The notes: a model not told the origin generated them from the sequence alone. Counted from the stretch's first letter, positions 44,791 through 49,558 are shown. The stretch is DNA of 64,000 nucleotides from an uncultured Maricaulis sp. (GCF_905480005.1 NZ_CAJQOO010000008.1:1-64000); one strand, 5' to 3'. Numbers and translations are program-made.

Positions 44791-44878
44791 GGAGGGGTGG
44801 CAGAGTGGTCGATTGCGGCGGTCTTGAAAACCGTTGAGCCGCGAGGTTCCGGGGGTTCGAATCCCTCCCCCTCCGCCA
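44791..44878 (+). tRNA. tRNA-Ser (anticodon TGA), CCA encoded
   Basis: Acceptor GGAGGGG/CCCCTCC, anticodon loop ctTGAaa, long variable arm, T-loop TTCGAAT, G-CCA end. Confidence 0.96.
44864..44878. repeat. attL (tRNA-Ser 3' end)
   Basis: CCTCCCCCTCCGCCA identical to 49299-49313. Confidence 0.85.
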
Positions 44879-45008
44879 CCGGATCAAAGATTTCCAAATA
44901 AATTTCAATCTTTTGCCCTCTTAGAAAGAGTATCTACCCCATCAATTACCCCAACTTGGCGCGTTGCAGGTAACAACGGACAGGTTGCCCCTCCTCCCTA
45001 AATTCCGG

Positions 45009-45296
45009 CTAGGCGACACACCCCCCGAGGATCTGCTTGCCGGTTTCCAAGTTCTTTTTACAGAGGGTCGAAAAACAATCTTCGCCACGCTCCTGCAACC
45101 GCGTGCTCAGCGTCTCTGCCGTCATGCCGAATATGTTGCAGATCTCGTCTTGGGTACACTGGATCTTGACCATGCCGACAAGGCGGTCGAAGTCCTCGTC
45201 CGAAAGCTCTTTGCGCGGTCGCCCGCCCTTGTTCTTCGTGATGTCCGCCTCGCGATTCTGGAAGGAGCCTTGCCCCGTTCCACTAGACTTGCGCGT
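45009..45296 (-). pseudogene. Terminase small subunit-like/phage packaging-type HTH ORF lacking a start codon
   Basis: Manual translation: TRKSSGTGQGSFQNREADITKNKGGRPRKELSDEDFDRLVGMVKIQCTQDEICNIFGMTAETLSTRLQERGEDCFSTLCKKNLETGKQILGGCVA*; upstream TAG and no ATG/GTG/TTG before the conserved GRPRKE block. Confidence 0.6.
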
Positions 45297-45340
45297 CTAG
45301 CGTGCGTACCCCTTGGCTATTGATCCATCAGGGGAACAAA

Positions 45341-45583
45341 ATGAGATTGTTGATTGTGTGCGGCGCAGGCTTGGCACTTGCCGGGTGTGATATGGGCAGT
45401 CAGTCTGTAAACCTTGAGGGCTGCGCTCTGGACTCGCCAGGCGGGGCGCTTGAGCGCGTAGCCACGTCTGACCTAAGGCTTGAGGACGGGGCAATCACTG
45501 CCGTTGACGACGAAGGCCGGGAAACCCGCCATATATCCTACGGGGCCGGCGTTCTGGTGTGCGTTAAAACTCCCGAGGACTAG
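45341..45583 (+). CDS. Small lipoprotein of unknown function
   Basis: MRLLIVCGAGLALAGCD lipobox; AGGGG RBS-like 8 nt upstream. Confidence 0.65.
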   Translation: MRLLIVCGAGLALAGCDMGSQSVNLEGCALDSPGGALERVATSDLRLEDGAITAVDDEGRETRHISYGAGVLVCVKTPED

Positions 45584-45835
45584 GCGTCGTCTCGACGGTT
45601 TGTGTCCGTGCCGTTGTCGAACTCGACTTCCAGATGAGCCGTGCCGTCTGCCTCGATCCACGCCGCAGCACCAATAGCACCGGGCGGCGGGCTCTATCGC
45701 TATCCGATCCCCTGACCGTCTGGTCTGTTAGCTCTGCTTGACCGAATGGGCTCTGCGACTCCGGCATATATACAATAGAACAAACAGGCGGCTCAGAGCG
45801 GATCCTCGCCAGAATCGGAGCGCCTTTAACCTATT

Positions 45836-45854
45836 AATACCTAAAGTATTTTTT
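45836..45854 (+). terminator. Possible intrinsic terminator
   Basis: AATAC-ctaaa-GTATT hairpin followed by TTTT. Confidence 0.35.
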
Positions 45855-45887
45855 GGGCTGACTCGGCGATTTGTACCCGAGGGCAGT

Positions 45888-46628
45888 TCAATTCGTCGGG
45901 CGTTCTGTGCCAAATTTCCGGGCGGCGAATTTAAGCGGCGGGATCCATCGCTCGTAGCGCCAAGCCTCTGCCGGCCTGTAAGGCGTCGGGAACTGGGACA
46001 GGGAGTATACGCCAGCGCCACAGCCAGACGCGGAATCCTGACAAAACCAGCCGACACGATCCAGTTCCGATAGAACTCGATAAGCGGTCACGCGACCGCA
46101 ACCGGCCCGACTGACAACCGCTTTGGCGTCCAGCTTCCAAAGGTTCTCCCCGTCGTCATCATGCCTTGCGAGGGTGTCCACAAGCAACTTGGTCGCGGGA
46201 GGGCTGAGCAATCTCCATGCGGGCAGTGCCAGCCAATGCTCCGGGATTCGGCCGAACGGCATTCTCGAATATGGCGGAGCGAGGTGTCGGCCTGCTGGAT
46301 AGGTCACAAGCTCGATCATACGGGTCCGGGCGCATCTTGGCCCTCGCAGACCGCCCTGACGATGTAGCGAGAGAAACCCAAGCCGCCTTAAGGTGTCTAC
46401 GGACTTTGCAGCTGTATCGGAGTGCGCATTCACAACCCTGGCCGCATTGGCGTCGGTGAATGGGATCGTGCCCGGCGCCCCCGGCCGCCACCGTGCCAGC
46501 AGATGGACTAGCAACCTGACGGAGCGGCCGTCTAGGGCCTTCCACGCATCAGTTTTGAGCCAATGCCGGTAAACCCGGGCATGGGGGAGGTTTGGTGTCT
46601 GGCGCATGGCGAAATTGCGCTGGGGCAA
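45888..46628 (-). CDS. Double winged-helix island protein (replication/regulatory type)
   Basis: LPHARVYRHWLKTDAWKALDGRSVRLLVHLLARW...TIPFTDANAARVVNAHSDTAAKSVDTLRRLGFLSLHRQGG; second HTH DAKAVVSRAGCGRVTAYRVLSEL. Confidence 0.65.
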   Translation of the reverse strand: MPQRNFAMRQTPNLPHARVYRHWLKTDAWKALDGRSVRLLVHLLARWRPGAPGTIPFTDANAARVVNAHSDTAAKSVDTLRRLGFLSLHRQGGLRGPRCARTRMIELVTYPAGRHLAPPYSRMPFGRIPEHWLALPAWRLLSPPATKLLVDTLARHDDDGENLWKLDAKAVVSRAGCGRVTAYRVLSELDRVGWFCQDSASGCGAGVYSLSQFPTPYRPAEAWRYERWIPPLKFAARKFGTERPTN

Positions 46629-46711
46629 CGCTCAGTCGTATCGCACTCGGGATAGGCCACGCTTCGCGCGCGCGTGCGTACTGCTCCGAAAACGTCGCCC
46701 CAGCGATCCGG

Positions 46712-46969
46712 CTATCTAATCAGGCCGGTCGAACGCGCTTGATGCTCCGCATTGGAAACGGCTTCAAGCAGGGCGGGAAGGTGCTGCACTGAAAGCGTTA
46801 GCCCTTTCCTCGTGGGCTTCCAGCTTCCGTCTCCGGCCGCGTAGTAGGTTCGGGCTGAAAAAACCGGCGTGCCTTGGTAGATGTCCAGATGGACCCGCAC
46901 ACTTTCTTTTGCGTTCTTTGCCCAGTGCGCGATTTCTATCGGCAAGGCACAGCTACCGTTATTCGTCAT
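46712..46969 (-). CDS. PC4/YdbC-like ssDNA-binding-type protein
   Basis: IEIAHWAKNAKESVRVHLDIYQGTPVFSARTYYAAGDGSWKPTRKGLTLSVQHLPALLEAVSNAE matches the bacterial PC4 pattern. Confidence 0.7.
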   Translation of the reverse strand: MTNNGSCALPIEIAHWAKNAKESVRVHLDIYQGTPVFSARTYYAAGDGSWKPTRKGLTLSVQHLPALLEAVSNAEHQARSTGLIR

Positions 46970-47378
46970 TGGCGGCCTCGCAAGCTGCGTCGCGAACCAC
47001 ATGAACCTCAGCGTCGAGAATATACCGACCAACCCATGAACCATCAGAAGTGTGCTCCCGGCGCGTTACTATCGGGACGCCCAAAACTCGCAGACCTCGA
47101 ATGTATTCGCTGGTCCGGCGCGCCCAACGGTAAACGGACGCCTCCCCGCTCGTGAAGCCACGCGCGCCGTGCAATATTAGAAGGCGCATAGTTTCCGCCG
47201 CACGTCCTCCGGGAATCGAAACCGGATCGCCATCCGGGAGCACCCGGATCGTGATTCCGGGTTTTACATTGCGCGCGGTGTGGCTATGTTCGTGAAGCGA
47301 GAGGGTTGTCAATTCTATCGTATCGGCCCGGGTTGGCGTTGCACCGCCACTCGGGCCATTTTCGTTACTGATGGTCAT
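46959..47378 (-). CDS. Winged-helix-like hypothetical protein
   Basis: AETMRLLILHGARGFTSGEASVYRWARRTSEYIRGLRVLGVPIVTRRE pattern; overlaps neighbours in an operon-like array. Confidence 0.6.
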   Translation of the reverse strand: MTISNENGPSGGATPTRADTIELTTLSLHEHSHTARNVKPGITIRVLPDGDPVSIPGGRAAETMRLLILHGARGFTSGEASVYRWARRTSEYIRGLRVLGVPIVTRREHTSDGSWVGRYILDAEVHVVRDAACEAANDE

Positions 47379-47580
47379 TAGTCGTGCCTTTCGTATTGGA
47401 GAGGTTGTCGAGAAGATTGGTGACTGCATCGCAGCGGATCAGCCGACGCGATCCAATCTTGAGCGAGGCCAGCTCGCCTTTCTGCATGAGCCGATAAACG
47501 GTCGCACGGCTTACGCCCAACTGGGACGCCGCAGCGACAACCGAGAACGCGGCGGGTTCAGACTTCACTTCCATGAGCAC
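47365..47580 (-). CDS. AlpA/Xis-type HTH_17 excisionase-like protein
   Basis: FSVVAAASQLGVSRATVYRLMQKGELASLKIGSRRLIRCDAV. Confidence 0.85.
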   Translation of the reverse strand: MLMEVKSEPAAFSVVAAASQLGVSRATVYRLMQKGELASLKIGSRRLIRCDAVTNLLDNLSNTKGTTNDHQ

Positions 47581-47898
47581 TCCTTTTGATACGCCCTGGC
47601 CTCCGCTGACGATTCAGCGGGCTTGCAGATACAAGGGATAGGCAAACGCGCGCGAAGCCAACCCAAAAGACTCAGGCCAAACGCATAGACCGGCACACCC
47701 ATCAACGCCGATTCTTCCGGCACCATTTACGCCCTGAATTTGAATGGAAATTTCGACCAACAGACGTCTGGATATTTGAATCCATGCTACAGCTTTTTGA
47801 CGGCCACGTTCCGGTTTTGTTCAAATATGCGCGCAACTGGACCCTCGATATTGCAGAAATCACAAATCGGCGAGCGTCGTTGCGATGGGATCGGGGGG

Positions 47899-49155
47899 TT
47901 ATGGCGTAGCCCGATTGCCCGATTGGGACATTGGAATCACGTTCGAGTCACCGCTTCCGGTCAGGTATGCCCGCCAATGATCGACTAGGTGTCTCCGCCG
48001 GTCCAGCGCATCGCCGCGCCGATAGGCACGCTCGGTTTTGCTTCCCACGACGTGCGCCAGCGATATCTCGATGATTTCCCGGGAGTGCTTGGTCTCTTCA
48101 AACGCCCAGTCTCGAAAGGCCGACCGGAAACCATGAACAGTCGCCTTGGTATTGGGCACGGCCATTCGGCGCAGGACGGCGCTCAGGCTCGAATTTGAAA
48201 GCGGCCTACCCCTTTGCCCCGGAAAAACCAGATCTCCATCAGCGCCCCCTGATAGCGGCCGAATGACATTTAGAATTTCAAGGGCAGAGGTGCTGAGCGG
48301 GACGCGGTGAGGCTTACCGGTTTTCATGCGCTCGCCCGGGATGGACCAGACCTCCTTCTCAAAGTCTATTTCCTGCCAAGTCGCCCCCCTCACTTCTCCA
48401 GATCGCGCAGCGGTCAAAATCAGGAATGCCAAGGCCATCGCGGAGACGCCTTCCCGCTTCTTTAGGGCGTCGAAAAACTCTGGCACTTCTGCATAGGGCA
48501 TGGCGGTAAAATGTGCGGTGTCTGGCCTGCTCGATTTGTCGAGGCGATGCTCAAGCCCGCCCTTCCAACGCGCCGGATTTGGTCCGGTGATAAATCCGAG
48601 CGCCAAGGCCCTATCCATAACGCGTTCGATCCGCCCACGCGTGCGTCTGGCGGTTTCGGGCTTCGTGGTCCAGATCGGCCGCAGCGTGTCTGCAACGTCC
48701 TCAATGGTGATGTCATCAACCCGCTTCTTTCCAAGGGCGCCGGCCACCTTGAGAAGCGTAGTGCGCCATTGTTGGCGGTGTTTCGAGTTCTTCCAGTCAT
48801 CCTCATTGAGCGATAGAAAATCCTCCGCCAGCTTTTCAAATGTCGGGCGGGCGCGGAGCGCATTTCGAGCCGCAATAGGATCGACCTCGTTTTGAACCTG
48901 CGTGCGTGCGGCTTCTGCTTTCGTGCGGGCATCGCTTAAGCCAAGGCCGCCCCTATTGAGTTCGGACGCCCGCCCAAGTCCCATTTCCCGGGTTCGGCCA
49001 TTCCAGCGGTAGAGGAGCACCCATCGGCGAGACGCGCCTGGCCCAACAACCAAGTACAAACCGCTCCCGTCGCTATGCCTGCCCGGTTTGGCATCCTCCC
49101 GAAGGAGCGCGGAGAATTGGCCGCTCGATATCTTGTGTTTTGGTCGGCTCGCCAT
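47899..49155 (-). CDS. P4-type tyrosine recombinase/integrase
   Basis: DUF4102-like N-terminus (KPGRHSDGSGLYLVVGPGASRRWVLLYRWNGRTREMGLG); LTAARSGEVRGATW; HGFRSAFRDWA; AHVVGSKTERAYRRGD. Confidence 0.96.
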   Translation of the reverse strand: MASRPKHKISSGQFSALLREDAKPGRHSDGSGLYLVVGPGASRRWVLLYRWNGRTREMGLGRASELNRGGLGLSDARTKAEAARTQVQNEVDPIAARNALRARPTFEKLAEDFLSLNEDDWKNSKHRQQWRTTLLKVAGALGKKRVDDITIEDVADTLRPIWTTKPETARRTRGRIERVMDRALALGFITGPNPARWKGGLEHRLDKSSRPDTAHFTAMPYAEVPEFFDALKKREGVSAMALAFLILTAARSGEVRGATWQEIDFEKEVWSIPGERMKTGKPHRVPLSTSALEILNVIRPLSGGADGDLVFPGQRGRPLSNSSLSAVLRRMAVPNTKATVHGFRSAFRDWAFEETKHSREIIEISLAHVVGSKTERAYRRGDALDRRRHLVDHWRAYLTGSGDSNVIPMSQSGNRATP

Positions 49156-49298
49156 CTTCTACCCCAAAAAATACCCTAAATTGTTGGTGAGATATTGGGG
49201 CACAAACGGAGACAGGTCTAGACACGAAACACCAGTCTGGACAGGGATTTTCGCCCCATCAGTACCGCCTGATACAGTAGAGTATGACGGTGGCGCGG

Positions 49299-49313
49299 CC
49301 TCCCCCTCCGCCA
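49299..49313. repeat. attR
   Basis: CCTCCCCCTCCGCCA identical to tRNA-Ser 3' end. Confidence 0.85.
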
Positions 49314-49558
49314 TCAGTCTTCCGGATCACACATACTTCAGAGCCCCGGCGTCAGAGCCTCGGCTTCAGGGCCCCCGGGCTGGCTGGCGCCACCAGTTCG
49401 AACAAGTCTGGCAGACCTGACCGTATCTCCCGCAATCTCCTAATCCTGCTCAAGCGAGGGTCACGTCATCCCGCTATTTCATCACGAAAGCGTGGAAGGG
49501 GCAGACGTCCGTGAAAATTGCCCTAGGTTCTGTCCAGAGAAGGCACGGATATCGACAC

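What the first reader, a model, noticed from the sequence alone, without database searches (positions are those of the whole stretch)
44864..49313. Minimal (~4.45 kb) tRNA-Ser island with satellite-like organisation
Seen: an exact 15-bp direct repeat (CCTCCCCCTCCGCCA) at the tRNA-Ser 3' end and at 49299. Between them lie a P4-type integrase beside attR, an AlpA/Xis-type HTH, two wHTH proteins, a PC4-like protein, a lipoprotein gene and a TerS-like ORF beside attL. Known: Gram-negative phage-inducible islands (PICIs) use an int-alpA-rep-...-terS layout. Inference: this could be a very small or decayed PICI/satellite; the lipoprotein is then the only evident cargo. It is much smaller than described PICIs and no primase was recognised.
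Basis: partly seen in the sequence, partly recalled or inferred. Interest (0 to 1): 0.7.

Follow-up and report, generated by a model that had tools for sequence, protein, structure and literature searches.

The report
Tiny satellite-like tRNA-Ser island
A 4.4-kb mobile DNA element sits in a tRNA-Ser gene of this (apparently alphaproteobacterial) genome and belongs to a widespread family, with no name that I could find, of very small islands that share the integration and early-gene module of tailed phages but carry no virion genes, so it most likely travels as a stripped-down phage satellite.

Summary
An intact 4,435-bp island lies between the 3' end of tRNA-Ser(TGA) and an exact 15-bp repeat at 49299. 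Order: int - alpA - HTH_91 winged helix - PC4 ssDNA-binding protein - REP (a tandem-duplicated winged helix) - lipoprotein/TerS fragment - tRNA. alpA, HTH_91 and PC4 overlap, which suggests an operon. The island is not a one-off. I delimited 19 relatives in tRNA genes (4.0-10.3 kb). All have their own att duplication and paired arm-type repeats; cargo varies, including restriction systems and superinfection immunity. Their integrases mostly group apart from those of prophages. The same int/HTH_91 early module starts real prophages with terminase genes; there the REP slot can hold a Prim-Pol primase. No virion genes were recognised in the islands. TerS-type genes occur in three (two terS-homologous, one DUF5681); the window's copy is a fragment without a start codon. 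PICI, PICMI and P4 membership tests fail (size, primase, attachment site). Best reading: a minimal helper-dependent, satellite-like element with a functional-looking core, not a decayed PICI. Excision, replication and packaging remain untested.

The parts
44791..44878 (+). tRNA-Ser(TGA), the integration target
   Evidence: ARAGORN; Rfam RF00005
44864..44878 (+). att core repeat at the tRNA 3' end (15 bp)
   Evidence: exact repeat
44933..44958 (+). arm-type repeat pair, tRNA side (TACCCCA boxes at 44935 and 44947)
   Evidence: 81% repeat of 49158-49183; boxes 12 bp apart; analogous pairs in 19 related islands
45012..45296 (-). TerS-family fragment (95 codons open, no start codon before codon 42, C-terminal part missing)
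   Evidence: 36% identity over 69 aa, E 5e-6, to the ORF next to TerL of Psychrobacter phage pOW20-A, which matches PHROG TerS at 2e-13; alignment
45341..45583 (+). 80-aa lipoprotein (lipobox LAGC-D), orphan cargo
   Evidence: signal/lipobox read from sequence; no homologue in 137 family genomes, phages or plasmids
45888..46628 (-). REP: 246 aa, two tandem winged-helix domains (46266-46607 and 45924-46265); predicted replication initiator/organiser
   Evidence: homologous halves; single-domain homologues at the same place in other islands
46712..46969 (-). PC4-like single-strand-binding protein
   Evidence: Pfam PF02229 1.2e-9; profile matches PDB PC4 structures
46959..47378 (-). HTH_91 winged-helix protein; start overlaps alpA, stop overlaps PC4 start
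   Evidence: Pfam PF22324 3.6e-11; sequence
47365..47574 (-). AlpA/excisionase-type HTH
   Evidence: TIGR01764 7e-11 over cut-off, HTH_17
47899..49155 (-). tyrosine integrase with arm-binding N-domain (P4-type)
   Evidence: PF13356, PF22022, PF00589 over cut-off; clade of tRNA-island integrases
49158..49183 (+). arm-type repeat pair, int side (boxes at 49160 and 49172)
49299..49313 (+). distal att core repeat

Best explanation
A complete, minimal integrative element that works as a helper-dependent satellite. SHOWN by sequence: integrase-made insertion at the tRNA-Ser 3' end, with att cores and arm sites at both ends; a compact early cluster alpA-HTH_91-PC4-REP with overlapping reading frames; the same core in att-bounded islands of 4-10 kb in many tRNA genes, with exchangeable cargo; the same int/HTH_91 early module in prophages that have terminases; no virion genes recognised in the islands. 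INFERRED: a helper (phage infection or induction) switches on alpA; AlpA and Int excise the circle through the arm sites; REP opens or organises the origin, with PC4 coating single strands, and recruits host or helper replication; the DNA is packaged by a helper terminase (the TerS remnant and the TerS-type genes in relatives point that way); after injection Int re-integrates it. The lipoprotein would be the cargo that benefits element or host, for example by surface exclusion (weak guess).
For: 20 att-bounded islands with conserved order and paired arm-type repeats near both ends of every one. Island integrases cluster apart from prophage integrases (6 label changes against 12.8 shuffled, 0 of 500 as low; window in a 99/99 clade of six islands). 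Two islands with the same core (88-93% identical DNA) but different middles sit in two tRNA-Ser genes of one genome. Prophages with Terminase_6N/6C or Terminase_2 carry HTH_91 in their early region, and the REP slot in such prophages holds a wHTH or a Prim-Pol primase. PHROG hits of REP homologues are mostly replication initiators or helicase loaders, best 3e-4; plasmid RepA N-domains are among the PDB and Foldseek hits. TerS-type genes: window fragment, L066 Terminase_2 over cut-off, L220 DUF5681. Defence cargo in relatives. Experimental precedent for int-alpA-prim elements of this size as satellites: PICMI (PMC10803314).
Against: No helper, packaging site, excised circle or particle seen. 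Most relatives show no terS that I could recognise. Single-protein scans of IMG/VR found no free mini-island (close relatives only). MarR/CRP-type regulators score as well as RepA in structure and profile comparisons, so REP could be a regulator. The REP model is of low confidence (pLDDT 63). The TerS ORF is broken. The host genome is a draft of 189 contigs.
Confidence: 0.52

Rival explanations
1. A site-specific integrative island that can excise and re-integrate but has no dedicated transfer route: it spreads passively by generalised transduction, natural transformation or gene transfer agents; HTH_91/PC4/REP are regulators rather than a replication module.
For: No packaging gene in most members; REP profile also matches MarR/CRP regulators; the host genome carries a portal-terminase cluster on a 4.75-kb contig that looks GTA-like, and a 4.4-kb element could fit a GTA particle (GTA sizes from own knowledge).
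Against: REP homologues sit where prophages carry a Prim-Pol primase or other wHTH; three TerS-type genes in the family; conserved early cluster like that of satellites.
Confidence: 0.33
2. Remnant of a larger prophage that lost its late genes in place.
For: Shares the early module with prophages; broken TerS fragment.
Against: Nineteen other islands of similar size with att and arm sites at both ends; a late-gene deletion would have to spare the distal att each time; integrases form mostly separate lineages.
Confidence: 0.08
3. An integrative replicon (plasmid-like), mobilised by a conjugative helper.
For: REP resembles plasmid RepA N-domains weakly; some relatives lie on megaplasmids.
Against: No relaxase recognised among window or relative ORFs; an oriT was not searched for; module homologues are in phages.
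Confidence: 0.07

Closest known systems
PICMI (phage-inducible chromosomal minimalist islands, Vibrionaceae; PMC10803314)
   Same: [quoted passage not shown] similarly small (Vibrionaceae elements average 6.7 kb); no capsid-remodelling or terS genes needed; cargo with phage defence
   Different: prim is mandatory and absent here (REP wHTH instead); PICMIs sit at fis, this family at the 3' ends of tRNA genes; other class of bacteria; helper unknown
Gram-negative PICI (PMC6092414)
   Same: int, alpA regulator, putative replication module, no structural genes, terS in some members
   Different: 4.4 kb not 12-15 kb; no pri-rep; window terS broken; own integrase, HTH_91 and PC4 set; helper untested
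P4-like satellites
   Same: P4-type arm-binding integrase, AlpA/Vis-type HTH, tRNA att site
   Different: no alpha primase-helicase, no sid/delta/psu recognised, less than half the size (P4 features from own knowledge)
Early module of HTH_91-bearing prophages in IMG/VR (L111, L129, L138, L152, L180)
   Same: int - HTH - HTH_91 - replication gene order; HTH_91 in PHROG phrog_25676
   Different: prophages continue into terminase and other late genes; integrases mostly of other clades

Membership tests
Site-specific tRNA integrative element | att duplication restoring the tRNA 3' end, cognate integrase and arm-type sites | tested here: met
Site-specific tRNA integrative element | unoccupied target site in relatives | tested here: inconclusive
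   G063, G064, G065 and G069 have no integrase of this kind next to the same tRNA, but they are other species and the downstream gene block is missing in the window genome, so the junction cannot be compared base by base
Gram-negative PICI | integrase + transcription regulator + replication module order | tested here: inconclusive
   int and AlpA-type HTH met; replication role of REP is inferred only
Gram-negative PICI | primase/replication gene of pri-rep type | tested here: not met
   no primase in the island
Gram-negative PICI | size about 12-15 kb | tested here: not met
   4,435 bp; relatives 4.0-10.3 kb
Gram-negative PICI | no phage structural or lytic genes | tested here: met
   window ORFs; none among the 25 commonest PHROG families of 78 cargo ORFs from the islands, 20 rarer families not shown
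Gram-negative PICI | attachment site never used by prophages | tested here: inconclusive
   an IMG/VR prophage-type contig (L144) has an integrase 0.2 kb from a tRNA-Ser(TGA); its att was not mapped
Gram-negative PICI | induction and packaging by a helper phage | not testable with these tools
   needs culture
PICMI | co-located int, alpA and prim | tested here: not met
   prim absent
PICMI | insertion next to fis | tested here: not met
   insertion in tRNA-Ser
P4-like satellite | alpha primase-helicase plus psu/delta/sid | tested here: not met
   none among window ORFs

The most novel reading that the evidence does not exclude
A class-wide family of minimal phage satellites (about 4-10 kb) integrated in tRNA genes, in which a winged-helix initiator with a PC4-type ssDNA-binding protein replaces the usual primase; the 4.0-kb member (L068, int and REP the only core genes detected) would be among the smallest satellites known.
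Probability: 0.4. Interest if true: 0.75.

Novelty: new variant of a known kind. Interest (0 to 1): 0.57.

Why it matters
If it is a satellite, it lowers the apparent minimum for a helper-dependent phage parasite to integrase, AlpA, small DNA-binding proteins and one non-primase initiator, and adds a carrier of defence genes across many families of one bacterial class, where I found no such satellite family described. Even if it is not packaged, it defines a recurrent mobile module (int-alpA-HTH_91-PC4-REP plus arm sites) that lets such small islands be recognised and delimited automatically.

Tried and rejected
Primase or helicase in the island: none. REP246 against phage and plasmid records by tblastn: nothing useful. 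IMG/VR by single proteins PC4, HTH_91, REP: none; INT: one distant contig; only a degenerate HTH_91 motif scan reached relatives, so absence of free islands in viromes is weak evidence. Alignments A1 and A2 were too diverse for the search for related loci. Iterons: no convincing repeat array. Sigma-70 promoter and terminator scans at chance level. Lipoprotein homologues: none. Structure of the first REP domain: low-confidence winged helix, fold matches non-specific. Decayed-prophage reading rejected because 20 islands keep both ends. PICI, PICMI and P4 membership rejected on tested features.

Full report
OBSERVATION. tRNA-Ser(TGA) lies at 44791-44878. Its last 15 bases recur exactly at 49299-49313, giving a 4,435-bp insert. 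TACCCCA occurs three times in the 64-kb window on both strands, all in these arms. This is the expected anatomy of a tyrosine-integrase attP with core and arm sites, and the integrase has an arm-binding domain (PF13356).

GENES. On the minus strand from the distal end: integrase 47899-49155; an excisionase/AlpA-type HTH 47365-47574 (TIGR01764 over its cut-off; Phage_AlpA itself only E 0.032); HTH_91 winged helix 46959-47378; PC4 46712-46969; and a 246-aa protein 45888-46628 called REP here. alpA and HTH_91 overlap by 14 bases, HTH_91 and PC4 by 11, so the three are probably translated from one message. REP is two copies of one winged-helix domain; in the other islands it is single. An orphan 80-aa lipoprotein (45341-45583) faces the other way. 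Next to the tRNA is an open frame (45012-45296) homologous to phage TerS. Its best relative is the ORF immediately upstream of TerL in Psychrobacter phage pOW20-A (E 5e-6), which is PHROG TerS at 2e-13. The window frame begins right after a stop and has no standard start before codon 42, and it ends where the TerS C-terminal part should begin. So the TerS claim is right by homology, but the gene looks dead.

RELATIVES. Searches with REP, HTH_91 and PC4 in 137 family, 398 order and 385 class genomes and in plasmids led to islands, mostly beside tRNA genes. Mapping the tRNA 3' end to its second copy delimited 20 islands including the window's. Targets are Ser (TGA, CGA, GCT, GGA), Lys, Thr, Met, Gly, Val and Arg tRNAs; sizes 4.0-10.3 kb. 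All have an integrase; 17 have REP; L221, L222 and L078 have no REP hit, and L221 has a weak REP_ORF2-G2P (rolling-circle type) match near that slot (below cut-off). Every one of the 20 has a pair of roughly 11-12-bp-spaced repeats near both ends, within about 145 bp of the tRNA end and about 95-205 bp from the distal end; shuffles reached the score in 0 of 200 for 17 islands and in 1, 2 and 4 of 200 for the other three, the window being the 4 (block shuffles, so rough). Box sequences differ between islands. In one genome, two islands with the same core (88-93% DNA identity) but different middles occupy two tRNA-Ser genes. HTH_91 was found almost only within the window's class: 9 of 399 phylum genomes over the cut-off, all same class or closer, none in 14 control genomes. 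The class is taken to be Alphaproteobacteria because the named plasmid hits (Sinorhizobium, Tritonibacter, Paracoccus, Shinella, Microvirga) are; the genome itself is unnamed.

LINK WITH PHAGES. A degenerate HTH_91 motif in IMG/VR gave 98 stretches; 28 encode HTH_91, many with a neighbouring integrase. Several come from contigs with terminase genes: Terminase_6N/6C in L138 and L180, Terminase_2 TerS in L152. In these contigs the gene after HTH_91 and a small ORF is a REP homologue (L129, whose terminase-like ORF has no Pfam hit), another wHTH (L180) or a Prim-Pol primase (L152, PF09250 5e-12; L111 looks the same by sequence). This positional exchange is my main reason to read REP as a replication initiator; PHROG hits of REP homologues are weak (best 3e-4) but point the same way. 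PC4 proteins bind ssDNA (established for the family; profile matches). An integrase tree of 31 island and 15 phage-type rows needs 6 label changes against 12.8 for shuffled labels (0 of 500 as low); the window falls in a 99/99 clade of six islands.

CARGO. Relatives carry, among others, a type IIG restriction-modification enzyme (L063), type I restriction (L067, and a partial match in L071), a candidate defence nuclease (L070), a protein with a superinfection-immunity domain and an intact Terminase_2 TerS (L066), and DUF5681 (L220). Among 78 cargo ORFs of the islands the 25 commonest PHROG matches include one terS and no capsid, portal, TerL or tail family; 20 rarer families were not shown. 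The window's lipoprotein has no homologue in the collections searched.

MECHANISM. The anatomy parallels PICMIs, where int, alpA and prim are needed for excision and replication, alpA-up1-prim form the phage-activated early regulon, and no terS was found (PMC10803314). I infer the same cycle here with REP/PC4 in place of prim. Nothing here shows excision, replication or packaging. The host genome also has a portal-terminase cluster on contig C12 that looks like a gene transfer agent, so passive carriage of a 4.4-kb element is a real alternative.

MEMBERSHIP AND NOVELTY. By the published Gram-negative PICI criteria (PMC6092414) size and primase fail; PICMI fails on prim and fis; P4 fails on alpha and the capsid genes. 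I found no paper describing this set (open-licence papers only). I therefore call it a new variant of a known kind: satellite-like minimal integrative elements.

SITE HISTORY. Relatives G063, G064, G065 and G078 (and, as far as the printed part shows, G069) carry a gene block (RimK-like ATP-grasp, GNAT, carbon-nitrogen hydrolase; a small entericidin-like lipoprotein gene in some) between this tRNA and the MsrP-type gene. These genes were not found in the window genome beyond weak 25-33% matches. Sequence right of the distal att is unmatched for about 130 bp, then matches the MsrP upstream region. The block was thus probably lost beside the island; whether island activity caused it cannot be told.

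Noticed in passing
window 49314-49558: The RimK-like / GNAT / carbon-nitrogen hydrolase block that lies between this tRNA-Ser and the MsrP-type gene in several related species is missing here and was not found elsewhere in the 94%-complete genome; the deletion ends within about 130 bp of the distal att site.
   Followed up: partly
L071 (own genome, contig C187, tRNA-Leu CAG) and L067: The same genome has a second, diverged island of this family in tRNA-Leu(CAG), with int next to the tRNA; a relative 77-79% identical over its core lies in a tRNA-Leu(CAG) of another genus.
   Followed up: partly
L221 and L222: Two islands with 88-93% identical cores but different middles in two tRNA-Ser genes of one genome: duplication or double acquisition with cargo exchange.
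   Followed up: partly
L067, L071, L100, L218, L221, L222, L223: A recurrent cargo protein (about 170-220 aa, motif GG.RWW..CP) is shared by seven islands; the members tested had no Pfam or PHROG match.
   Followed up: partly
L096 (Microvirga terrae plasmid pR24_3, 39.7 kb): HTH_91 directly upstream of toprim-domain and AAA-ATPase genes on a circular 40-kb replicon: another replication-linked context for HTH_91.
   Followed up: no
L231 (own genome, contig C12): Terminase large subunit, portal and protease-like genes resembling a gene transfer agent cluster on a 4.75-kb contig.
   Followed up: partly
window 45283-45300: Perfect 6-bp-arm inverted repeat CTAGAC-ttgcgc-GTCTAG exactly at the 5' edge of the TerS fragment, between it and the divergent lipoprotein gene.
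   Followed up: no
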